Assembly: GCA_022457155.1 (NCBI GenBank)
Contig: JAJGOT010000260.1
Coordinates: forward strand, 558,001-622,000
DNA length: 64,000 nt
Direction of reading: 5' to 3'
Source: Cladopsammia gracilis
Taxonomy: Eukaryota > Cnidaria > Anthozoa > Scleractinia > Dendrophylliidae
Positions 1,197-59,508 of the stretch are shown here, one piece after another (positions within the stretch are counted from its first letter, which is position 1; every line of letters begins with the position of its first letter). The translations under genes were made by a program, and so were the position numbers. Under the pieces are notes generated by a model. The model was not told the origin of the DNA and made no database searches. It was given only the letters and a program-made list of their open reading frames with translations.

Positions 1197-1311
1197 AATT
1201 TGCCATTATTTCTATGCCAATTTACAATACACAGTTTACAGCTTGAGGATAATTAATTAATTTTGATAAATACTAAAAATAACTAATAGGGTTGGAACAT
1301 TCCATACCATA

Positions 1312-1378
1312 TTACGCCCCCCATATCAGGCCCCGACCAACCATATCAGGCCCCGACTTACCATATTAGGCCCCGTGT
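1312..1378 (+). repeat. short tandem repeat of CCATATCAGGCCCCGAC
   Basis: Three to four imperfect copies of a 19-20 bp unit containing CATATYAGGCCCCG. Confidence 0.6.
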
Positions 1379-2045
1379 ATACTAAGCTTGTTTACCGGCG
1401 ATTCACTTAGATTTCGGTCCTGTTTGATACCCTTGCCAAGCAGTAACTCGCATGCATCAAATTCACAGTATGTAACCTTAAATTACGAAATATCATACCG
1501 GAAATATTGGAACGATAACAAGTCGCAATTCCCGTTCCACTCGGTGAAGAATATGTCATCTGTTCTGCCATTAAATCGCTTAACAGTCTCAACGTTGTAT
1601 TCGCCAATTTAATATCAATATTCACATTGAGTTTTACTAGGTTACCTCTGATAATTCCGAAAGTAACAGGGGCCGCTTCTTTCGGGACTCTGCGGTACGT
1701 CAAAAATAGAAAGGTAAATAGCGGAATAATAAATGAATTTTTGTCACGCCAGCAGCAGTAACACTATATACTTTAGACAGCTTCATACTGAAGTTAAACG
1801 GAGAAAGCTTTTCGGATGGTGCTATGTTTATTTCTTTTATTCTAATCGTTAAATATACTTTTCACAATTCTTATTAATAAAAAAACAATTTCTGTAAAAC
1901 TGCAAGGACCACTCGAACAAACAGTAGCAAAATGTAGCTTGGTCTTTGAGCAGATCAGGATCAGCAGTGAACTAAATAAAAAACTTTAACTTGCAAGGCT
2001 GATCAGACAGCAAATTCGTTCGATTTCTTTTAATAATTAATATAT

Positions 2046-2087
2046 GCCCGATATTTCGATTAGACAAAACTAACCTTCATCAGGGGC
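2046..2087 (-). ncRNA. hammerhead ribozyme-like motif (type I, minimal)
   Basis: On the minus strand: stem I GCCC (2087-2084), core CTGATGA from 2083, one extra A, stem II GGTTAG/CTAATC with a TTTTGT loop, GAAA, stem III made only of the palindrome ATAT, cleavage triplet ATC, then GGGC (2049-2046) closing stem I. Stem II has one G-U pair. Cleavage is untested. Confidence 0.5.
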
Positions 2088-2280
2088 TAGGAATAAATAT
2101 GTGGAAGATTAAATTTCGTCGCGTAATGCGATGAAATTAAACCTTCCACATATTTATCATTACTAGCCGTTTCTAGTTTTCAACAATTACTTGTTTATTA
2201 GGCTATCGTGTGTCAGCATTTTATCTTAGTCCTTTTTAAATATTGTAACCGTTTCTTTCCATCTTTACTTAGCTTACCTA

Positions 2281-2322
2281 GCCCCTGATGAAGGTTAGTT
2301 TTGTTGAACCGAAATATCGGGC
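2281..2322 (+). ncRNA. hammerhead ribozyme-like motif (type I, minimal)
   Basis: Plus-strand partner of the preceding motif: stem I GCCC (2281-2284) with GGGC (2319-2322), core CTGATGA (2285-2291), extra A, stem II GGTT/AACC, GAAA (2311-2314), palindromic ATAT stem III, predicted cleavage after C2318 (ATC). The extra nucleotide between A9 and stem II departs from the textbook core. Confidence 0.55.
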
Positions 2323-2451
2323 ATATATTATTAAAAGAAATCGAACGAATTTGCTGTCTGATCAGCCTTGCATGTTAAAGTTGTTTTATAAAAAAAAAAA
2401 CCACCCACTTAAATTAAAATCAAAATAAACCCCTTGCATGATTATATAAGC

Positions 2452-2846
2452 CCATACACCGAATGCAAATATGGCCGACCAACAATTTTTTGTTTGGACA
2501 GGTTCTCAAGAAAAGAAAAGCAATTAGATAACAATAAAGATCAGGTCAAAATAAGTCATTGTGTGCATTTTGAAGGCCATATTCTTATTTTAGGAGAAGT
2601 TATAGGCAATCAAATTTTGGGAAAAACATGAAAGTGAGGCTAGTGAGGCTAGAATGTCGTTTTTCATACAAATGCTTAAGATTTCAGTGAGCCATAACTT
2701 TGCAACCGTTTAACCAGAAACACTCAAACTTTGCAAGATGATGCACTTAGCAGCACTTGTCTACGTGATATCATTAATTTCTCTGAAAACTTGGCCAAAC
2801 AATAAACTGCCTGACGGCCATAATATTATTTGCATTCGGTATATGG
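2452..2846. mobile_element. TIR element (MITE), about 395 bp
   Basis: Terminal inverted repeats of about 20 bp, CCATACACCGAATGCAAATA at the left and its complement (one mismatch) at 2827-2846. No transposase; the small ORF inside is not conserved-looking. Confidence 0.55.
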
Positions 2847-5076
2847 TGCTAGTAAAACAGGGATGCTTACCCTTTACATTGCTTTAAATAAAAGGCAATG
2901 AAATGAGCCACAATATTAGTAGACCGTTGCCATTTTCAATTATTTCTAAAGAAAAACACAGTGGACATCTAGCCACTTCTGGACAACACAATAACGCTCG
3001 CTTGTCACCTGTCAACGGCACAGTGATAGCCGCCACTAAAATATGCCATAATTGATTGTTTACTTTATCTTAATAGAATAAGGTGCGTATCCCCCCTCCC
3101 CGCCCCTTTAACCTAAAGGGGGAACTTGAATTAAATTTTAATAGGTTTTAAGAAGGGAAAGAATAAGGAAAATGATTTTCGGAACCTGACCAACAGACAG
3201 TTAACCCACGCAAAAGCACCTCAGGTTGCTACCAGTGGACTAAGTTGGTGTCCGTCTATTAATTATTAACTACAATTTACAATTTTAAAGCTTCACAAGT
3301 CTTCAATATTTCTTATTTCTCTAAATTTTACATATTCTTTGAGAAAAGCTATTTCTGTCAAAAAATCACCAAACAATTTACAAAACACCTCTTAATGAAC
3401 TTTATGGGATGAGTATAGAGTTTCTGGATTGCTTGAAATGTGAACGAGATATTTGCATTAAACCCATGTTAGACCTATATCGTAAGTTATGCAAACTGCA
3501 GACTTGTGCTCACAAGAAGAAGCTATAGAAGCTCACAACACCGGATACTGCCATTTATGTTGCTGACCTTTTCTTCCCCCCTGACTCTGACCAAAGGATC
3601 GCGGGTTCTTGGGACGAGATTGGTCCCCAGGTTTCCCAGGATACTGTTGCGCATGGGTAGAAAAAAGAGACTACTGCATCTTTGAGCACAGGCTCAAAGT
3701 TCAGGCATGGCATATTTAGTGATTTTATTGGCGATTTCCACAGAGGAGATAAGTTTTTACAATGCTAAAAGACTATGGTTTTTTATGAAATACCCTTCAA
3801 ACACTAAACAGTATTTTCTCCGGAAACAGTAAACACTAAAATATTGGCCAATATAACAGTAAACACTAAAAAAAGTATGGGTAAATAACACTAAACACTA
3901 AACCCCATTCAGACCCTCATGTTAAGTAGCAGGAAAATGGCATTCAGGTGTAGTCCCACCTTAATTGAATAAGGTGTGTTTCCCCACCCCCTCAATTATA
4001 CAAGGTGTGTATTTGATGTATATATTTTTTCAAACTAACGTTTAAGTAATCACGGCCCGACTGGCATTTTTACCTCTGCCTACGGCCTGTTTCGCTAAGA
4101 CTAGTTCGCTCAAAGGTTCTTAAAAAAAACCTACTGTTACATTTCGTCGGCCATAACTGATTTGTTACTTCTTAATTCATTATCTGTTGTCCTTTTTCCC
4201 TATTAAGTTGTTCACTTTCCTGGCAAGAAAACTGTCAAAATTATTGTACTAGCTTTGATCATCTCATTTTATATTACTACCATACCGCCGTAAACGTAAA
4301 CACTCTTTATGGGTGTTTTGCTAAGTGACGAAGTGACTTGAGGAGCCGGAGGTATCAACCATGCCTCAACAAGCCAGCTTGCGCGTTGGTTTTTGGAAAA
4401 GAACAAAGGATGGAAATAGGAAGCCAAACTAGTGCCACCCGACATATAGCCGATTTTTAATCCTTACACGTACGGCGAAAAACGATTATAAATTATAAAA
4501 AATCGATCATGGAATTTGGAAAACTTTTTTCGAGCGAAGATCGACATTAATAATTAAAAAAAATTCACGAATTCAAAGCTTTTAGAACTGTTATGGCACC
4601 AGTTTTAGCTTAAACGCGTGGCAATAAGTTTCGTTAACGAAATACTGCGGATATAAGATCCCCTCTACCCCCGCAAACGCCCCCCAAGCCCCCCCCCCCC
4701 CCCCCCCTCCGTCACCTTGGAAACTTTTCTGTGTTTCCTTAACAGATACGTGTTACAGTTTTGAATTTGAAAGGAGAAAGGAGAAGTTTTTTTGTTATTG
4801 GTATTTTCTCATCTGCATTTTAATTTCTTATCCGCATCTTCCTATCCGCCATCCACCATGCATCCGGTCCTCATTTTACAGACACCTTGGCAACGGTTCA
4901 ATGAAGGTCAAACTCCGGAAATGACAAAGTGACATCAGACATAAACTTTACCGGTAACCTGACTCCTTATATAGTGTTGCGCAACCGAGCGTTAGGTCTG
5001 ATGTATTCAATAAGTTTTAAAGTGTCACTAAAAGTATTGAAGGTTTTTTAAAAATTAATAAAGATGGTGTTTTTAA
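2847..5076. other. no gene recognised; simple repeats
   Basis: Nothing coding could be supported. It holds a cluster of AACACTAAA-type short repeats (about 3798-3905) and a poly-C run near 4688-4707. Confidence 0.5.
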
Positions 5077-13266: not shown

Positions 13267-14226
13267 ATGGCCGCTACTATAACTAATTTCATTGGTAGGC
13301 GTAGAAACAGATCCTCTGGCAACTCTAGCGACGGAAACGGGAGCTCACCGGATTATAAAAAGCCAAAAACCTCTGCCGAGGGCATCGATAACAGCAACAT
13401 TTCTAGTAGCGAAGAGTTCAACGATGAAGTCATGACTGCTCTTGAAATGACTGCAGATATAAATGGCAAATTTCAAATGATCCTAAACAAGCTGAACAAG
13501 CTCGATGAAATTGAAACTTCAGTGAAGAATATTGAATCCACTCTTAATGCTCTAGAGGAAAGGACGAGAAAACTCGAGGACTTTCAGGACACCGCCTCGC
13601 AAGACATAAATGAGATAAAACGGAGATGTAGCTCTACAGAAGGGAAATGTACAGCAGCGCAACAAGCTATCGATAAACACAGCAATCTGTTGGCAGACCT
13701 ACAAAGAAAAGAAAAGGAGATTCAAGTACAAATGGAGGCGCTACACACGAAAGATCTTTATCTGGAAGCATACTCTAGGAGAGAAAATATAAAGTTCACG
13801 AACATCAGGGAGGTCACTTCACCGTCTGGAGAACGCGAAGACACCGAAGAAGTATTAAGAAACTTTCTAGAGAACGAACTTGGTCTACGAGATGCAAGAT
13901 CGGTAGAAATACAGCGAGTGCATCGACTAGGCAAAAGAAGGAGCGACTCTAGTCCACGTCCGATATTAGCAAGATTTTTGCGATATAGAGATTGTGAAAG
14001 CATTCTGGCTCTAGGGCATCGCCTTCGTGATAGTGATTACCAGATGTTCCAGGATCTACCAGTAGAGATCATAAAGCGAAGAAAAGATCAAATGGCTACT
14101 CTGAAGAAAGCAAAACAACATAAGATTCCAGCCTCGTTCAGTAGAGCGGAGCCTGACAAGCTGTATATCCGAGGCAAGATGTGGCCACCAGGGAAAACTC
14201 TTGAACTACATGCAACAGATGAGTAA
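13267..14226 (+). CDS. LINE ORF1 protein (L1 ORF1p-like RNA-binding chaperone)
   Basis: 319 aa. In the L1 family this protein trimerises through a coiled coil, coats the element RNA and has nucleic-acid chaperone activity. The visible layout fits: a Ser/Asn/Lys-rich head (1-50), a long heptad-like coiled coil (about 55-165), an RRM-type core opening with LEAYSRRENIKF at residue 166 and including VEIQRVHRLGKR and RPILARFLRY, then a C-terminal domain (about 256-310; KIPASFSRAEPDKLYIRGKM). The first ATG follows an ATGGCGGCG-containing leader. It ends with TAA at 14224-14226 and is followed by ORF2 on the same strand. No internal stop or frameshift. Confidence 0.85.
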   Translation: MAATITNFIGRRRNRSSGNSSDGNGSSPDYKKPKTSAEGIDNSNISSSEEFNDEVMTALEMTADINGKFQMILNKLNKLDEIETSVKNIESTLNALEERTRKLEDFQDTASQDINEIKRRCSSTEGKCTAAQQAIDKHSNLLADLQRKEKEIQVQMEALHTKDLYLEAYSRRENIKFTNIREVTSPSGEREDTEEVLRNFLENELGLRDARSVEIQRVHRLGKRRSDSSPRPILARFLRYRDCESILALGHRLRDSDYQMFQDLPVEIIKRRKDQMATLKKAKQHKIPASFSRAEPDKLYIRGKMWPPGKTLELHATDE

Positions 14227-14344
14227 TTGAAGGCTTTTCTGACAATTGACTTTTTGAATGTTATAGGCGAGTCGGGAAGAGCGAAGTGGAATAACTACCC
14301 CTGTAGACTTTTCCAAAAGCTACCTTCCTTCCCAACGCTATTAG

Positions 14345-14412
14345 GTTTTATTATTATTATTTTTATTATTACTATTATTATTACTATTATTATTATTATT
14401 ATTATTATTTGT
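14345..14412 (+). repeat. (TTA)n microsatellite in the LINE inter-ORF spacer
   Basis: TTATTATTA runs with ACT interruptions between ORF1 and ORF2; hydrophobic ORFs here are artefacts. Confidence 0.9.
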
Positions 14413-14664
14413 TATCTTTTTTTTGTTGTTGTCCTTTCTGCTATTGATGTTTTTCGTCTTGATCGTATACGATTACAGATTTCTTGGGTTGTTTACTTTT
14501 TCTATAGATACTATTCCTATGTGTGATGTTTTGTTTGTAAAACTTTTTTCACTTAATCATATGCTGAATTTTTGTAAGGCCAAACAGAAAGGGTATGACA
14601 AACACACCAAGGTGCTAACTTATGGTTCACTGATAAAGAAATTATTCAATAACCTACAATCATT

Positions 14665-17600
14665 ATGGAATTAAGAATTGCTTCGTTAAATGTCAGGGGA
14701 CTGAGGGACAATACCAAAAGAAGAGAAGTGTTTAATTGGCTACGCAAGAAAAATTTTCAAATTTACATGCTACAAGAGACGCATTGCACTGAAAACACCA
14801 ACGATTTATGGCGCACGGAATGGGGCTATCAAGCATGTTTCACTTCCTATGAGAGTAACAAAGCAGGCGTTTGCATTCTTTTTAATAATAACTTCAATTT
14901 TCAAATTATGAGAGCTTTTACGGATCCCTTGGGTCGTTTTATTATATGTGACTTAAAAATCAATGAAAAAACTCTAACCCTAGCTAACATATATGCCCCG
15001 AACGAAGATAATCCAATTTTCTTTCAAGAATTATTCGATCAATTAATAGGTTTTCAATGCGAACATGTAATTATTGGAGGCGACTTCAACCTTGTTTTGG
15101 ATGTCGAAAAGGATAAGAAGGGCGGCCTCGCCAGGTCACATTTAAATAGTTTGAAAACGGTCCAAAGCTTTTCTGATCAATTAGATTTACTGGATGTTTG
15201 GAGAATCTTTAATCCCGATGAAAGGCGATACACCTGGAGGCAGCGACTTCCTGAGGTCCATTGTAGACTTGATTTCTTTTTGGTAAGTCAGAGTATAATA
15301 GGTAACACTAATCAGGCAGATATCGTTCCTGGTTATAAAACCGACCATTCCATGATAACACTGACTTTATCCCTACATTCAAACTCTAGGGGACGAGGCT
15401 TCTGGAAACTAAACACATCTTTTTTAACAGAAGAGGCTTACATAAGCCTTATCAAAAACACAATCAAAGAAACACAGAACGAATATAAAGCAGACGAATC
15501 TGTTAGCCCCTCTTTACTGTGGGAAATGATAAAACTTAAAGTACGGGAGAAATCGCTCCACTATGCATCATCTAAAAAGAAACGGACAAAAGAACGAGAA
15601 ACAGAATTAGAGCAAATAATTTCTACCCTACAGAGGGAAATCGACTTTTTAAAAGACAGTGATACGCAAAAATCTGAAGATCTAACAAAACAATTAAATA
15701 CGTATAAGAGGGAATTTGAGAGAATCATAGTATCGAGAACTAAGGGTGCAATTTTAAGGGCTAAAGTTAGATGGTATAACAAAGGGGAAAAAAATACTAA
15801 ATACTTTCTAAATATGGAAAAAAGGCACCATAACCAGGGGACGATAAGCCAGCTGAAGATCAATGATACGGATTTTGTCACCTCAGATGAGACAATTTTA
15901 AGTGAGTGTGAATCTTTCTATAGAAACCTTTACTCATCCAAAATTAACACGCCTAATAATCACGATACACCTTTCTTTCGGCAAGATAACGATACAGTTT
16001 TAAGTATGGAGGAGCAGAACCTTTGTGAGGGGTTGTTAACAGAAAAAGAGTGCCTAGAAGCCTTAAAAGCTATGGAGTCAGAGAAAACCCCAGGAACTGA
16101 TGGTCTACCAGCTGAATTCTATAAGGTTTTTTGGATAGATATAAAAATACCTCTTATCAAAGCTCTTAATTTTTCACACGAAACAGGACAACTTTCAATT
16201 ACTCAGAGAAGAGGCATCATTAAGCTCATTCCCAAAAAGGACGCGGAACCTCATTTTATTAAGAACTGGAGACCCTTAACGCTTCTAAACTGTGATTATA
16301 AAATAGCAACAAAATCTGTGGCTAATCGATTGAAAACTGTACTTCCTAGGCTTGTAAACAACGACCAGACTGGCTTTATAAAAGGAAGATTCATCGGTGA
16401 AAACATCAGACTAATTGACAGTGTTATTAGTTTTGCAAAGGAAAAGAACATTCCAGGTTTACTTTTGTTTTTAGACTTCGAAAAGGCTTTCGACACTTTA
16501 GAACGGTCTTTCATCAAGAAAACGCTTCAGTTTTTTGGCTTCGGCCCTTCTTTTTCAAAGTGGATAAATGTATTTTACAACAATACGGAAAGCTGTGTTT
16601 TAAACAACGGTTGGACTAGTAGCTTCTTTAACATCCAAAGAGGGGTTAGGCAAGGCTGCCCTCTCTCGCCTTACCTTTTTGTCCTTTCAGTTGAAGTTTT
16701 AGCCAAAACAATTCGGAAAAACATAAATATCAAAGGAATCGTTGTTAATGAAATGGAAATCAAGTTAAGCCAATACGCAGACGATACAACTTTAATTTTA
16801 GACGGATCAAGGGAATCTTTAGCTGCTTCTCTTGTGACACTGGACATGTTTGGGGTTTTTTCCGGTCTCAGACTCAATGGTAAAAAAACAGTTGCCCTTT
16901 GGATTGGAGCGAACATTGGGAAGGAGGTTACACTCTTTCCAGAAAGAAATTTTAAATGGCCGAACGATAAAGTAAAAGCCCTGGGGGTGTGGTTTTCTGT
17001 GCATCCCGAAAAGACAGCAACCTTAAACTATGATGAAAAATTGGAAAAAGTCCGTAATATTTTGAGCTCCTGGAAATACCGTAGGCTAACTCTTCTAGGG
17101 AAAATCACAGTACTAAAGAGCCTAGTGGCTTCTCAATTGGTTTACATTTTTTCCTCAATGCATACGAACGAGAAGGTTATCAAAGAGGTTAACAAACTCT
17201 TTTATTCGTTTTTATGGAACTCAAAGGGGGATAAGATCAAACGTAACATAATAATAAACGACTATACAAATGGGGGGCTAAAAATGGTCGATATGGAAGC
17301 TTTCAATAAGTCGCTAAAGGTCGCGTGGATAAGCAAATACCTGGATTCAGAAAACCATGGGAAATGGAAAATTTTCTTTGACTTACAACTTAAAAGATAT
17401 GGAGGCAACATAATACTCACTGGTAATCTCGACAGAAAAGACACCACAAAGTATATCAAAGTAACAGATACTTTCATTAGAGAGATTTTAGAAATTTGGT
17501 CAGAAGTGAACTTCGATGGACTTATAGCTTCCGATGCACAGTTTTCAACGCAAACTTTATGGTACAACTCGCTTATCAGGATTGACAATTCTCCTATCTT

Positions 17601-18432
17601 CTACAAAGAATGGTTTTCTAAAGGAATATCCAAAATAAACCACTTGAGAAGGGCAGATAAAACTTACCTCACATTAAATGAATTTCAGAACAAATACAAC
17701 ATAAAAGTTAACCCTCTCATATATTATGGAGTAATATCGGCACTGAAATCTGCCTGGCGAAAGTGCAAGGACAGCTTGTTACAAATTAGCTCTAACCACG
17801 AAAGTTTCTCAACAAAAATATCCAAAACTCGGAAAGTAACTAAACTAGCATATAACAAACTCGTAAGTCTAAAAAGCGGCACACCGACACATAGCCAGCA
17901 AAAATGGCTGAATGACTGTACGGATGAAAATGATGAGAATGTTAACTGGAAACAGGCCTACCAACTAGCCTTCAAATACTCTAAAAGTGTACGACTAAGA
18001 GAGTTTCAATTTAAACTATTACACAGGCGACTACCAACAAATGATTTCTTAACTAAAATAGGTATAAAAGATAACTCAATGTGTTCCTTTTGCCGTGAAG
18101 AATCAGATAGTCTGTACCATCTTTTCTGGACATGTAAAAAGACATCCTCCTTTTGGGCAAACCTTGAGAGATGGATGCTGTACCATAAAATAACTGAGAG
18201 AAATTTTTCCTTAAAAAGTGCGGTAGCGCTTGGTCTGAGACCGGATTCCTCAAAGTGTCACCACCAAATTAATTTCTTGCTTCTTTTAGCAAGACATTAT
18301 ATTTGGTTATGTAAATACAAAGAAACTAGACCTGAATTGGACGCCTTCTTGTGTCACCTTAAATTTAATTATGAACTAGAATCTAAAGCTGAAAACTCCT
18401 TAATGCGAAAATGGAACCTTCCTGTTAATTGA
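14665..18432 (+). CDS. LINE ORF2: endonuclease and reverse transcriptase
   Basis: 1255 aa, open throughout. The N-terminal APE-type endonuclease shows N9 (ASLNVRG), E38 (LQETH), D140/N142 (GGDFN) and D227-H228 (KTDHSMI), the residues used by this family to nick target DNA. The RT follows with KTPGTDGLPAEFYK, QRRGIIKLIPKKD, DQTGFIKGRFIGENI, FLDFEKAFDTL (D604, D611), RGVRQGCPLSPYLF and the catalytic YADD at 704-707. A C-terminal knuckle has C1140, C1143, H1152 and C1157. In L1-type elements this enzyme performs target-primed reverse transcription. The ATG at 14665 is preceded by stops and begins directly with the endonuclease motif. The length fits L1/Tx1 ORF2. All key residues are present, so it is probably a recent copy. 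Confidence 0.95.
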   Translation: MELRIASLNVRGLRDNTKRREVFNWLRKKNFQIYMLQETHCTENTNDLWRTEWGYQACFTSYESNKAGVCILFNNNFNFQIMRAFTDPLGRFIICDLKINEKTLTLANIYAPNEDNPIFFQELFDQLIGFQCEHVIIGGDFNLVLDVEKDKKGGLARSHLNSLKTVQSFSDQLDLLDVWRIFNPDERRYTWRQRLPEVHCRLDFFLVSQSIIGNTNQADIVPGYKTDHSMITLTLSLHSNSRGRGFWKLNTSFLTEEAYISLIKNTIKETQNEYKADESVSPSLLWEMIKLKVREKSLHYASSKKKRTKERETELEQIISTLQREIDFLKDSDTQKSEDLTKQLNTYKREFERIIVSRTKGAILRAKVRWYNKGEKNTKYFLNMEKRHHNQGTISQLKINDTDFVTSDETILSECESFYRNLYSSKINTPNNHDTPFFRQDNDTVLSMEEQNLCEGLLTEKECLEALKAMESEKTPGTDGLPAEFYKVFWIDIKIPLIKALNFSHETGQLSITQRRGIIKLIPKKDAEPHFIKNWRPLTLLNCDYKIATKSVANRLKTVLPRLVNNDQTGFIKGRFIGENIRLIDSVISFAKEKNIPGLLLFLDFEKAFDTLERSFIKKTLQFFGFGPSFSKWINVFYNNTESCVLNNGWTSSFFNIQRGVRQGCPLSPYLFVLSVEVLAKTIRKNINIKGIVVNEMEIKLSQYADDTTLILDGSRESLAASLVTLDMFGVFSGLRLNGKKTVALWIGANIGKEVTLFPERNFKWPNDKVKALGVWFSVHPEKTATLNYDEKLEKVRNILSSWKYRRLTLLGKITVLKSLVASQLVYIFSSMHTNEKVIKEVNKLFYSFLWNSKGDKIKRNIIINDYTNGGLKMVDMEAFNKSLKVAWISKYLDSENHGKWKIFFDLQLKRYGGNIILTGNLDRKDTTKYIKVTDTFIREILEIWSEVNFDGLIASDAQFSTQTLWYNSLIRIDNSPIFYKEWFSKGISKINHLRRADKTYLTLNEFQNKYNIKVNPLIYYGVISALKSAWRKCKDSLLQISSNHESFSTKISKTRKVTKLAYNKLVSLKSGTPTHSQQKWLNDCTDENDENVNWKQAYQLAFKYSKSVRLREFQFKLLHRRLPTNDFLTKIGIKDNSMCSFCREESDSLYHLFWTCKKTSSFWANLERWMLYHKITERNFSLKSAVALGLRPDSSKCHHQINFLLLLARHYIWLCKYKETRPELDAFLCHLKFNYELESKAENSLMRKWNLPVN

Positions 18433-19190: not shown

Positions 19191-19289
19191 TTTCTGTAGT
19201 TTTTGGACATACTCCGTCCTGTACTCTTCTAATGTACAATGTTAAAAAATATATCTGTTCGTAAAAATATACATATGTGTTCGTAAAAA

Positions 19290-19333
19290 ACTGCAATTAA
19301 TTTCGCTGATAAAACTCAGCCTCATCAGGCAGT
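19290..19333 (-). ncRNA. hammerhead ribozyme-like motif of the Penelope-like element
   Basis: Minus strand: stem I ACTGC (19333-19329) pairs with GCAGT (19294-19290); core CTGATGA (19328-19322); one extra G; stem II GCTGA/TCAGC with a GTTTTA loop; GAAA (19304-19301); self-complementary ATTAAT stem III; predicted cleavage after the U at 19295 (AUU). It lies downstream of the GIY-YIG ORF, where Penelope-like elements are known to carry minimal hammerheads thought to act as dimers. Confidence 0.6.
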
Positions 19334-19476
19334 ATCTGCCATCTTGGATTCAAGATATATTTGCACCTTGGTGTATGATGCACCAAGTGTCTTATACCGT
19401 TCACATATTTCATGTTAGGTTTCACGAAGTGCCTCCTTCTTCTTCTAGCACTACTCTTGGTTTAACAAAGTCTTTC

Positions 19477-19806
19477 TTAGTGTTGATAACTTTCCCTCGT
19501 CGCCCTGTTTATCCTGACACTTTCTGCAATCTGTCTTAACATGGCATCCTTCCCGTACAATCCAGTCACTGACATCTTAAATTCTTGTCGTTCCTTGTCA
19601 TGCTTCTCCATGCAATGTCTCCACAGTGCTGATTTTTCGCTTTGATTCTCTAAACCCTCTGCGTGTTCCACTCCTCTCGTATAAGCATTTCTGGCTGTTT
19701 CCCCAATGTACTTATCTCTGCATCCCTGGCATTCAATTTCGTATGTTACACCGTGTGCACTACAGGGACCTTTCCCAGCTTGTTTGCAGACCAAAAAAAT
19801 CAGCAC
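19477..19806 (-). pseudogene. GIY-YIG endonuclease end of a Penelope-like polyprotein
   Basis: The minus-strand frame reads YEIECQGCRDKYIGETARNA, then TRGVEHAEGL and KSALWRHCMEKHDKERQEFK. The YE(I)xC..C...YIGET..R....R..EH pattern matches the zinc-linked GIY-YIG nuclease that forms the C-terminus of Penelope-like proteins. The upstream RT is missing. The final segment is broken: relative to the plus-strand copy, short deletions near 19470-19480 shift the frame and give an early stop. Confidence 0.75.
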
Positions 19807-20021
19807 TGTGGAGACATTGCGTGGAGAAGCATGACAAGGAACGACAAGAATTTAAGATGTCAGTGACTGGGTTGTACGGGAAGGATGCCATGTTAAGACA
19901 GATTGCAGAAAGTGTCAGGATAAACAGGGCGACGAGGGAATCCCTTATCAACACTAAGAAAGAGTGGAACTTTGTTAAACTACCAAGAGTAGTGCTAGAA
20001 GAAGAAGGAGGCACTTCGTGA
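19794..20021 (+). pseudogene. C-terminal fragment of a Penelope-like polyprotein, plus copy
   Basis: In-frame KKSALWRHCVEKHDKERQEF through INTKKEWNFVKLPRVVLEEE to a TGA at 20019. It covers the same region as the minus copy but keeps the final 25 or so codons intact. It lacks the GIY-YIG core, which begins upstream of the shared segment. The upstream 50 codons of the longer open frame are unrelated. Confidence 0.7.
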
Positions 20022-20109
20022 AACCTAACATGAAATATGTGAACGGTACAAGACACTTGGTGCATCATACACCAAGGTGCAAATATATCTTGAATCCAAG
20101 ATGGCGGAT

Positions 20110-20153
20110 ACTGCCTGACGAGGCAGAGTTTTATCAGCAAAATTAATTGTGGT
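20110..20153 (+). pseudogene. decayed hammerhead-like motif
   Basis: Counterpart of 19290-19333: ACTGC, CTGACGA and stem II remain, but GAAA has become AAAA and the closing GCAGT is GTGGT, so the core guanosine and stem I are lost. Confidence 0.5.
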
Positions 20154-20257
20154 TTTTTACGAACACATACGTATATTTTTACGAACAGATATATTAATTT
20201 TTTTAACATTGTGCGTAAGAAGAGTACAGGACGGAGTATGTCCAAAAACTACAGAAA

Positions 20258-57141: not shown

Positions 57142-57257
57142 AGCCATATTGATTTTGCCCCCAGGGTATCCAATAATAAACATTGAAAGCAAAGGAATAT
57201 ATTTATTTAATTTAAATGGTCATTATGGGATGCCCTGGGGGCAAAATGGATATGGCT
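57142..57257. mobile_element. short foldback element upstream of the sushi gene
   Basis: Inverted ends AGCCATATTGATTTTGCCCC / GGGGCAAAATGGATATGGCT with CCAGGG/CCCTGG inside; about 115 bp. Confidence 0.7.
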
Positions 57258-57340
57258 GCCGTATCTGCGAAACGGGGTATGAGTGGAGCACTGATTATGA
57301 GTACATTAACAATGATTTTTGTCACGTTTCCAATTAAACT

Positions 57341-57970
57341 TTATACATCAGTATCAGTTCCCTTGAGTGGTGGTTATACATCAGTATCAGTTCCCTTGAG
57401 TGGTGGTTATACATCAGTATCAGTTCCCTTGAGCGGTGGTTATACATCAGTATCAGTTCCTTTGAGTGGTGGTTATACATCAGTATCAGTTCCCTTGAGT
57501 GGTGGTTATACATCAGTATCAGTTCCCTTGAGTGGTGGTTATACATCAGTATCAGTTCCCTTGAGTGGTGGTTATACATCAGTATCAGTTCCCTTGAGTG
57601 GTGGTTATACATCAGTATCAGTTCCCTTGAGTGGTGGTTATACATCAGTATCAGTTCCCTTGAGTGGTGGTTATACATCAGTATCAGTTCCCTTGAGTGG
57701 TGGTTATACATCAGTATCAGTTCCCTTGAGTGGTGGTTATACATCAGTATCAGTTCCCTTGAGTGGTGGTTATACATCAGTATCAGTTCCCTTGAGTGGT
57801 GGTTATACATCAGTATCAGTTCCCTTGAGTGGTGGTTATACATCAGTATCAGTTCCCTTGAGTGGTGGTTATACATCAGTATCAGTTCCTTTGAGTGGTG
57901 GTTATACATCAGTATCAGTTCCCTTGAGTGGTGGTTATACAACAGTATCAGTTCCCTTGAGTGGTGGTTA
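57341..57970 (+). repeat. 33-bp minisatellite, 19 copies
   Basis: Unit TATACATCAGTATCAGTTCC plus CTTGAGTGGTGGT, nearly perfect, with few variants (GAGCGG, CTTTGAG, ACAACAG). Because 33 is a multiple of three, both strands stay open (plus 251 codons, minus 226 codons); no gene is implied. The last unit runs straight into GTGGTTAGAGCATCCGACTG, a tRNA A-box-like sequence with a poor B box (GGTCATAGTTC), so the unit may derive from the head of a SINE. Confidence 0.95.
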
Positions 57971-58010
57971 GAGCATCCGACTGGCGTGCGAAAGGTCATA
58001 GTTCTTTGTC

Positions 58011-59508
58011 CCACGCTCGTGACATGAACATGTTTACATCTCTCTCAATTCATTACCGAGCTTAAAACTTACTATCTTTCTTTATTTATCATCAGTTCCC
58101 TTGTCACAAGGTACTGTATTCATGGTGTGAGAAAAGCCTCAAAGAATGTAGTAGCACAATAAAGAAGTATCAAAGTCTAACCTATCTCAAATATTGTTTT
58201 TCAATACAGGAACACAATACCCAACTTTCCGGTTCTGCTCTGAAATATTAGAACATCCCCTTAAATATTAGAACTTCCCCTCAAATATTAGAACTTCCCC
58301 TCAGAACGGGAAAGGTGACTTTAGGAAACAGTATATTATATGATTTTATATATATTGCGACAGTCTAGGTGAGGTCTTGGAATCAAGTGGCTATATCAAA
58401 TTCACCTGCGAGTTGTTGGCAGCGCGTCGTTTTCCCGCGCAAATGTCGCCGGTTACATGTATTTGCGTTATTGGTTCATTGGATTGTCTGCGTCTGTTGT
58501 AATTGGTCAGAGTAATTGCTTTGGTTTTGGTTTTACGACACTCAAATGAAAAGTGCTCAAAAATAATTAGCAACAAGAACTGTGCTCCCTCTTCTTATCT
58601 TTCATATCTCATCGATTTAGAGGCCCTTTCCGCTTTGACTGTAATTTTGATACACAAGATTTGAACCTGGATCAACACGTACCATCATTCTACATTGAAG
58701 TATACTTACTGCCTGGCCAGAACAACATTGAAAACCCCTTCCACTGCTTAATACGAATATAAAAATGAAATCATCTGGAATAATCGCTTTATCAAAATTA
58801 ATGGAAAACCGTTCTTCTATTCCTCATGGCATAAAAACATGGTATAACTAAAATACGTCACCTTTTAGAAGAGAACAAAACGTTTTTAACTAAATCAGGG
58901 GCCGTATTCATGAAAGCATCCTAAGTCCAAAGAGCCTCTTAAGATATAACTTACGAGATAACTGGTATTCACGAACACCTCCTATTTTAAGACATGTCAC
59001 TGATATTTTTTTCTCGTAAACTTAGGACCTCCTAAATTTTTAAGACATGTCTTAACTGGTATTCAAAAATCCTATCTTAAGTGATATGTCTTAATTTTCC
59101 TTCTAAATTTAGGACCTATTAAAACTTGTCTTGACGGGGGCTAAATTCGACGGTTGACGAGTTTTACGTCGATTTTCAGCGTGATTATTGTGAATCACAA
59201 TAGTCACGATTAGATAAACATTTTAAAGCATTATATTGCTTTCCTAACAAAAATTAAATATTTTAAAGTAATGTCAAACGACACGTTTAATTACATATAG
59301 GCCTTCGTGTCATTAACTGGTTCCACATTTTTTTTCTCATTGCAGAGTTATATTTCCGTTTTTCGTGAAAATAAGCCCTTGTACAAGAAATATCGAAGTA
59401 GACCCTATTAAAATGATGATGGATTTGTTTGTTGCTTTCGCTACTGACCATGAACGAAGATATTATTAGTTTTGCTATCTTAAACTTGAGATGAAATAAG
59501 GGTTATTA
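58011..59508. other. no gene recognised
   Basis: Three AAATATTAGAACTTCCCCTC repeats at 58240-58305; at 58900-59120 a diffuse repeat of CTTAAGACATGTCTTAA-type words. Nothing coding supported. Confidence 0.45.

What the first reader, a model, noticed from the sequence alone, without database searches (positions are those of the whole stretch)
2046..2322. Inverted pair of minimal hammerhead-like motifs in one element
Both arms of the 1980-2387 palindrome carry stem I GCCC/GGGC, CUGAUGA, stem II, GAAA, a self-complementary AUAU and an AUC cleavage site. The two copies differ in stem II yet both still pair. Type I hammerheads with a stem III too short to work alone are known from Penelope-like elements and animal retrozymes, where dimers are thought to cut. 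The inverted rather than tandem layout is unusual.
Basis: partly seen in the sequence, partly recalled or inferred. Interest (0 to 1): 0.75.

Follow-up and report, generated by a model that had tools for sequence, protein, structure and literature searches.

The report
Inverted Penelope-element ends carrying hammerhead motifs
The mirrored pair of small ribozyme-like motifs is a decayed stub of a Penelope-like jumping gene, an arrangement this animal genome holds many times over, and relatives elsewhere in the genome suggest that the ribozyme's cutting activity is not needed for jumping.

Summary
In detail: both arms carry a minimal type I hammerhead (HHR) motif, far beyond chance. Stem II is intact in the minus copy, partly broken in the plus copy. 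'PLE-type minimal HHR' is right; 'unusual layout' is wrong. The motif lies in the 3' end of Penelope-like elements (PLEs; RT plus GIY-YIG). Of 25 neighbouring motif pairs within 6 kb in a 100-place listing, 20 are head-to-head like this one. The anatomy is of single insertions: target duplications of 11-15 bp, palindromic junction, and normally one short and one long ('tail') end (12 of 12 scored by script; 13 of 16 in a second sample by eye; none with two long ends). This fits an endonuclease that cuts and primes on both target strands from two start sites, as reported for an anole PLE. Stems I and II covary across families. Folding predicts that the inverted arms pair with each other and hide both HHRs. 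None of 80 family-B copies read ends at the HHR cut site. A recently amplified family (264 exact hits) keeps both stems but has the core CCGUCGA instead of CUGAUGA. Known kind; the changed-core family and the long/short rule are the interesting parts.

The parts
1884..1975 (-). Long-end 'tail' of the left arm (3' extension past the short start site)
   Evidence: matches the long end of many family-A copies fetched
1976..2091 (-). Left arm: PLE 3' end, inverted, with minus-strand hammerhead
   Evidence: 92% identical to the reverse complement of 2277-2389
2046..2087 (-). Minus-strand minimal type I hammerhead motif; cut predicted between 2050 and 2049; stem II 6 of 6 pairs (one G-U)
2093..2157 (.). 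Palindromic head-to-head junction; each half resembles the end of the PLE ORF (..MNRRDEI stop in L009) plus the start of its 3'UTR
   Evidence: in Rfam it meets only miRNA and small-RNA models far below their cut-offs
2161..2276 (+). 3'UTR segment present in the right arm, missing from the left arm; CTAGCC stands at both sides, so probably a microhomology deletion (inference)
2277..2389 (+). Right arm: PLE 3' end with plus-strand hammerhead, ending at the short start site
2281..2322 (+). Plus-strand minimal type I hammerhead motif; cut predicted 2318/2319; stem II 4 of 6 pairs in a row
1878..2397 (.). Approximate extent of the insertion with its A-rich target-site duplication at both ends (12 nt found for the sister copy L002; weak because it is mostly A/T)
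19191..20257 (.). Second inverted PLE-like insertion in the window, different family, with a GIY-YIG-like frame (by motif only; no Pfam hit) and an HHR-like motif on the minus strand at 19328

Best explanation
The feature is one old, heavily 5'-truncated insertion of a Penelope-like element, and the two hammerheads are the same 3'-end motif written twice because both ends of the insertion were copied from the 3' part of the element's RNA. Model: the element's GIY-YIG endonuclease cuts both strands of a target about 13 bp apart; each free 3' end primes reverse transcription inside the RNA, one at a 'short' start site (in the loop of a conserved GATCAG/CTGATC hairpin, about 65 nt after the HHR cut site in family A) and the other at a 'long' site about 90 nt further on; the two antisense cDNAs join head-to-head at a palindrome. 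The HHR therefore sits on both arms in opposite directions. Shown by sequence: PLE origin, two end classes, target duplications, conserved stems, layout statistics. Inferred: two-strand priming and the joining step (supported by published in vitro work on an anole PLE). The HHR motif is probably a real dimer-type ribozyme in most families, but self-cleavage of the template does not seem to be a step of insertion. In this copy the HHRs have no likely function: a transcript across both arms is predicted to fold them into one long hairpin.
For: PLE origin: L009 (745-aa open frame) and family-B L033 (849 aa) have RVT_1 above its cut-off and a GIY-YIG match (20.4 bits in L009, below the cut-off of 22.6; 26.1 in L033); these frames end just before the 3'UTR with the HHR. 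Listed relatives mostly carry the same domains; named ones include the coral Oculina patagonica and Branchiostoma (best 120 of 2960 listed). Motif: 5029 exact hits of CTGAWGAAG-N8-22-GAAATAT in the genome against 8 for the reversed control; stem II fully paired in 82 of 100 listed, 26 of 44 distinct strings against a shuffle mean of 4.0 and maximum 13. RNAalifold on 11 families returns HHR stems I and II, the GATCAG hairpin and a GATCC hairpin; 13 of 23 pairs have two-sided changes, against a shuffle mean of 6.4 (0 of 500 reach it), 91.5% of cells paired against 79.6%. Ends: 12 of 12 inverted pairs scored by script have one long and one short end, with duplications of 10 nt or more in 11 of 12 against 3 of 132 mismatched flank pairs. 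By eye, L047, L037, L052, L065/L066 and L067/L068 agree. Second sample: 13 of 16 (by eye). Published: the anole PLE protein cuts and extends both strands and starts at two internal sites that define the tail (PMC11167929, main text read); inverted pLTRs, a tail on one of them and palindromic junctions in rotifer Penelope (PMC3846280, passages read). Sequestration: HHR stem I probability 0 for each strand's HHR in the whole palindrome and in a model inverted pair, against 0.86 in a single unit and 0.87 and 0.12 in the two units of a tandem.
Against: Three of 16 pairs of the second sample depart from the long/short rule (L084 neither end clearly long; L086 and L089 long plus an atypical end) and L011 lacks a duplication of 10 nt. 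The anole paper saw no difference in start site between the two strands in vitro, which does not predict a one-each rule. The arms of the window copy differ by ~8%, so either it is old or two different RNAs served. The left arm lacks 116 nt of 3'UTR, which needs an extra deletion. The seven close copies share at least part of their flanks, so they are one insertion event carried by a larger repeat, not seven. The plus-arm HHR is hardly folded even without the left arm (stem I probability 0.001 in 2160-2400), so sequestration is not the only thing against it. One covariation measure, further pair types, is not exceptional (24 against 21.3, 62 of 500 shuffles reach it). End reading was partly by eye. 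Self-priming on an antisense template (PMC3846280) would give a similar palindromic junction.
Confidence: 0.82

Rival explanations
1. A self-primed product: one cDNA or antisense RNA folded back at its end and was copied, giving a hairpin that was inserted. The two arms would then be copies of one another.
For: Palindrome at the junction here and in several small pairs; proposed for rotifer Penelope (PMC3846280, passages read).
Against: The two outer ends differ in class (long against short) in 12 of 12 scripted and 13 of 16 read pairs, and both join target DNA with a duplication; a fold-back copy should repeat the same end.
Confidence: 0.2
2. An active inverted hammerhead pair: the opposite motifs work together (dimer in trans, circular RNA) and the layout is selected.
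For: Loop-less self-complementary stem III (AUAU, AUUAAU or ACCGGU) suits dimers; dimer cutting is published for PLE variants (Lunse 2017, seen only as a title in the reference list of PMC7761336).
Against: Arms are predicted to sequester both motifs; the plus copy has a damaged stem II; the family with a changed core makes the same head-to-head pairs (10 of 11 neighbouring pairs under 6 kb).
Confidence: 0.05
3. A MITE or DNA transposon with long terminal inverted repeats that happens to contain HHR-like sequence.
For: Inverted ends and a target duplication.
Against: Longer copies encode RT and GIY-YIG; no transposase domain was found in the frames scanned; the ends are unequal; many fetched copies have a single end running into the PLE ORF.
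Confidence: 0.02
4. A retrozyme (non-autonomous circular-RNA element with canonical type I HHR).
For: The same genome holds canonical HHRs (L002 2848-2892, 44.1 bits; L014 3618-3574, 32.0 bits against a cut-off of 34).
Against: The motif here has no looped stem III, is not found by the Rfam model, lies downstream of a PLE ORF in longer copies and is paired head-to-head, not in tandem.
Confidence: 0.03

Closest known systems
Penelope/Poseidon-type Penelope-like elements (anole PAc, PMC11167929; rotifer Pen families, PMC3846280)
   Same: RT plus GIY-YIG in one frame, HHR with stems I and II, tail, two start sites, inverted end repeats, palindromic junctions, short target duplications
   Different: Tail ~90 nt in family A against 30-40 bp; duplications 11-15 against the 8-10 bp named in the rotifer passages; the HHR lies in the 3'UTR after the stop, whereas in PAc it overlaps an ORF start (whether it also precedes the ORF here was not tested); one family has a changed catalytic core
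Minimal type I hammerheads of PLEs and Terminons (Cervera and de la Pena 2014; Lunse 2017: neither is held, known only through citing papers)
   Same: Core, stems, missing looped stem III, thousands per genome (PMC7229834, passages: over 6000 HHRs in the coral Acropora millepora, 1508 canonical, the rest minimal)
   Different: This copy is inverted, decayed and predicted to be self-sequestered
Animal retrozymes (PMC7229834, passages)
   Same: Type I HHR in a retroelement
   Different: Retrozymes have canonical HHRs in short tandem repeats and no ORF

Membership tests
Penelope-like elements | Reverse transcriptase with GIY-YIG endonuclease in one frame | tested here: met
   L033: RVT_1 37.1 and GIY-YIG 26.1 bits, both above cut-off; L009: RVT_1 above, GIY-YIG 20.4 bits, below the cut-off of 22.6; L056 (family C): RVT_1 only
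Penelope-like elements | pLTR/3' end with minimal HHR | tested here: met
Penelope-like elements | Optional tail, inverted end repeats, short target duplication | tested here: met
Penelope-like elements | Telomerase-like RT phylogeny | not tested
   no tree built
Type I hammerhead ribozyme | CUGANGA ... GAA core and UH before the cut | tested here: met
   both window copies; one extra nucleotide before stem II
Type I hammerhead ribozyme | Stems I and II supported by compensatory change | tested here: met
Type I hammerhead ribozyme | Stem III that can form in one molecule | tested here: not met
   AUAU without a loop in both window copies; so 'minimal, dimer-type variant', not canonical. The 26 distinct strings all show a loop-less palindrome, but its pattern asked for one of three
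Type I hammerhead ribozyme | Match to the Rfam type I model | tested here: not met
   none for the window nor for the PLE motifs in 19 further loci; the model does not cover this variant
Type I hammerhead ribozyme | Self-cleavage | not testable with these tools
   indirect: 0 of 80 family-B copies read end at the cut site
Retrozyme | Canonical HHR in short direct repeats, no ORF | tested here: not met

The most novel reading that the evidence does not exclude
In PLEs the hammerhead fold is kept mainly as part of a 3' RNA module for the reverse transcriptase, and cutting is optional: a PLE family with core CCGUCGA (264 exact genome hits; six copies compared are 98.1-99.7% identical over 310 nt; long open frames) has lost two core bases, keeps both stems, and still inserts in the same head-to-head way, with long and short ends (L052). 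In the same module the two start sites are used one per target strand, giving the one-long-one-short rule.
Probability: 0.5. Interest if true: 0.65.

Novelty: new member of a known kind. Interest (0 to 1): 0.45.

Why it matters
[quoted passage not shown] This genome offers a direct natural test: families with the usual core and a recently amplified family with a changed core share the same insertion anatomy. It also gives a clear structural rule (one long, one short end) for how inverted PLE insertions form, and shows that Rfam release 15 does not see this large class of motif.

Tried and rejected
Rfam covariance search for the HHR: no hit, judged uninformative because it gave no hammerhead hit on any PLE motif tested. 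MITE, retrozyme and chance origin: rejected. Search of solved structures with the PLE protein: no match. Footprint test for self-cleaved template: negative; it covered 80 of 433 hits, that is 80 of the first 100 listed; the other 20 were not fetched. Pfam on the GIY-YIG-like frame at 19480-19797: no hit. End scoring: of the inverted pairs at hand, 13 were given to the script and 12 were scored; L014 is of the window's own group (long plus short) and L003-L007 are the same event, so they were not counted; L037, L047, L052, L065/L066 and L067/L068 were read by eye; L040 and L057 were not scored. The second sample was 16 of the 20 minus/plus pairs; of the other four, L065/L066 was read and three were not fetched.

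Full report
What is there. The window copy carries, on each arm of a palindrome, GCCC-CUGAUGA-A-stem II-GAA-AUAU-C-GGGC. The cut would fall at 2318/2319 on the plus strand and between 2050 and 2049 on the minus strand. The same descriptor gave 0.005 hits on average per simulated 64 kb and finds three in this window.

What it belongs to. The window lies in an 878-Mb genome. A search with 1975-2400 found seven near-full copies (the window and six others) and many half copies; only 40 of 1199 candidates were scored. The seven share at least part of their flanks (window about 1272-4260), so they are one event inside a larger repeat. Many half copies run from the palindrome into a PLE frame, which in L009 has RT and a weak GIY-YIG match. 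The palindrome's halves resemble the last codons and first 3'UTR bases of that frame. The closest named relatives are in the coral Oculina patagonica, at 57-63% identity, so the host is probably a cnidarian (inference).

Ends. Reading outward from each HHR, family-A copies stop at one of two places: near GTTAAAGTTTTTTTAT (short) or ~90 nt further, near ACAGAAGTTATT (long). The window has a long left and a short right end. Thirteen inverted pairs were given to a script, 12 could be scored, and all 12 have one long and one short end; duplications of at least 10 nt (11-15) are found in 11 of 12, against 3 of 132 mismatched flank pairs. Five further pairs agree by eye: L047, L037, L052, L065/L066, L067/L068. 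In a second sample, 16 of the 20 minus/plus pairs of the first-100 listing, 13 follow the rule by eye; L084, L086 and L089 do not; none has two long ends.

How common. The pattern CTGAWGAAG-N8-22-GAAATAT has 5029 exact hits, its reversed control 8. Among the first 100 listed, 25 neighbouring pairs lie within 6 kb: 20 minus/plus, 3 plus/plus, 1 plus/minus, 1 minus/minus. In this listing the inverted layout is the norm for pairs.

Is the HHR real. Stem II pairs fully in 82 of 100 listed motifs; over 44 distinct strings, 26 pair fully against a shuffle mean of 4.0 and a maximum of 13 in 2000 shuffles. Across 11 families the RNAalifold consensus holds HHR stems I and II, a hairpin GATCAG..CTGATC whose loop contains the short start site, and a second hairpin GATCC..; 13 of 23 pairs have changes on both sides. 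Shuffling the 3' letters gives 6.4 such pairs on average and never 13 in 500; sliding the partners by 1-3 columns gives 1-7; the number of further pair types is not exceptional (62 of 500). The structure was derived from the same alignment, which favours it. Stem III is a loop-less palindrome (AUAU, AUUAAU, ACCGGU) in the motifs collected, though the collecting pattern asked for one of these three. This suits cutting as a dimer, as published for PLE variants (Lunse 2017, cited in PMC7761336; not read).

Does the inverted pair work. Folding the whole palindrome gives probability 0 for the HHR of either strand; on 66 nt alone the minus HHR reaches 0.86-0.91 and the plus HHR 0.14-0.15; the right half alone gives 0.001. 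In a model with an undamaged unit, stem I has probability 0.86 in one unit, 0.87 and 0.12 in the two units of a tandem, and 0 in an inverted pair. The HHRs of this copy are most likely by-products of insertion.

Does cutting matter for insertion. In family B, 433 exact hits begin with the bases right after the cut site. Of 80 read upstream, none ends at the cut site; 77 run at least 30 nt past it and 3 stop 7-14 nt upstream of it by the script's measure. So these insertion templates were not cut there. Family D keeps GCCC/GGGC and GGUUUG/CAAACC, but its core is CCGUCGA: U4 and A6 are changed (the numbering and the importance of these bases are recalled; loss of cutting is predicted, not tested). 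It has 264 exact hits against 2 for the control. Six copies differ by 1-6 of 310 bases, and four loci with open frames of 605-1154 aa carry it. Of 11 neighbouring pairs under 6 kb among its first 100 places, 10 are head-to-head, and L052 has one long and one short end. The anole work agrees: HHR mutants did not change insertion in vitro (PMC11167929, main text read).

What is known. PLEs with minimal HHRs, tails, inverted pLTRs and palindromic junctions are published (PMC11167929, main text; PMC3846280, PMC7761336, PMC7229834 and PMC6155905, passages). Five searches of the held library (search listings) showed no paper whose title or abstract start names a PLE family with a changed HHR core; none of them asked for that directly, and the two key HHR papers are not held, so this is weak evidence of novelty.

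Verdict. The wider pattern, a one-long-one-short rule and a thriving family with a changed hammerhead core, is what deserves follow-up.

Noticed in passing
L052-L055, L059, L060; 264 places in the genome: PLE family with HHR core CCGUCGA, both stems kept, recently amplified
   Followed up: partly
window 19191-20257: A second inverted PLE-like insertion of another family, arms 95-99% complementary in the three main blocks, HHR-like motif at minus 19328 and a decayed partner near 20113
   Followed up: partly
L002 2848-2892 (+) and L014 3618-3574 (-): Canonical type I hammerheads (Rfam 44.1 and 32.0 bits, cut-off 34), retrozyme-like, in the same genome
   Followed up: no
L079, L080, L081, L086: Very short inverted PLE pairs form long hairpins that resemble miRNA precursor models (up to 96 bits, below cut-off); they could be mistaken for miRNA genes
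   Followed up: no
window about 1272-4260: A larger repeat that carries the palindrome; long pieces are about 93-98% identical in six other loci (one partly), and L014 is a more distant relative; its identity was not worked out
   Followed up: partly
window 13267-18432: LINE with two long open frames; the second (1259 aa) has endonuclease, RT and zf-RVT domains
   Followed up: partly
window 57216-58044: Tandem repeat open in three frames (two plus, one minus), reading YTSVSVPLSGG in one of them
   Followed up: no
11 families, e.g. L009:1405-1605 minus strand: Conserved RNA hairpins (GATCAG..CTGATC and GATCC..) between the HHR and the long end, the first holding the short start site in its loop
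   Followed up: partly
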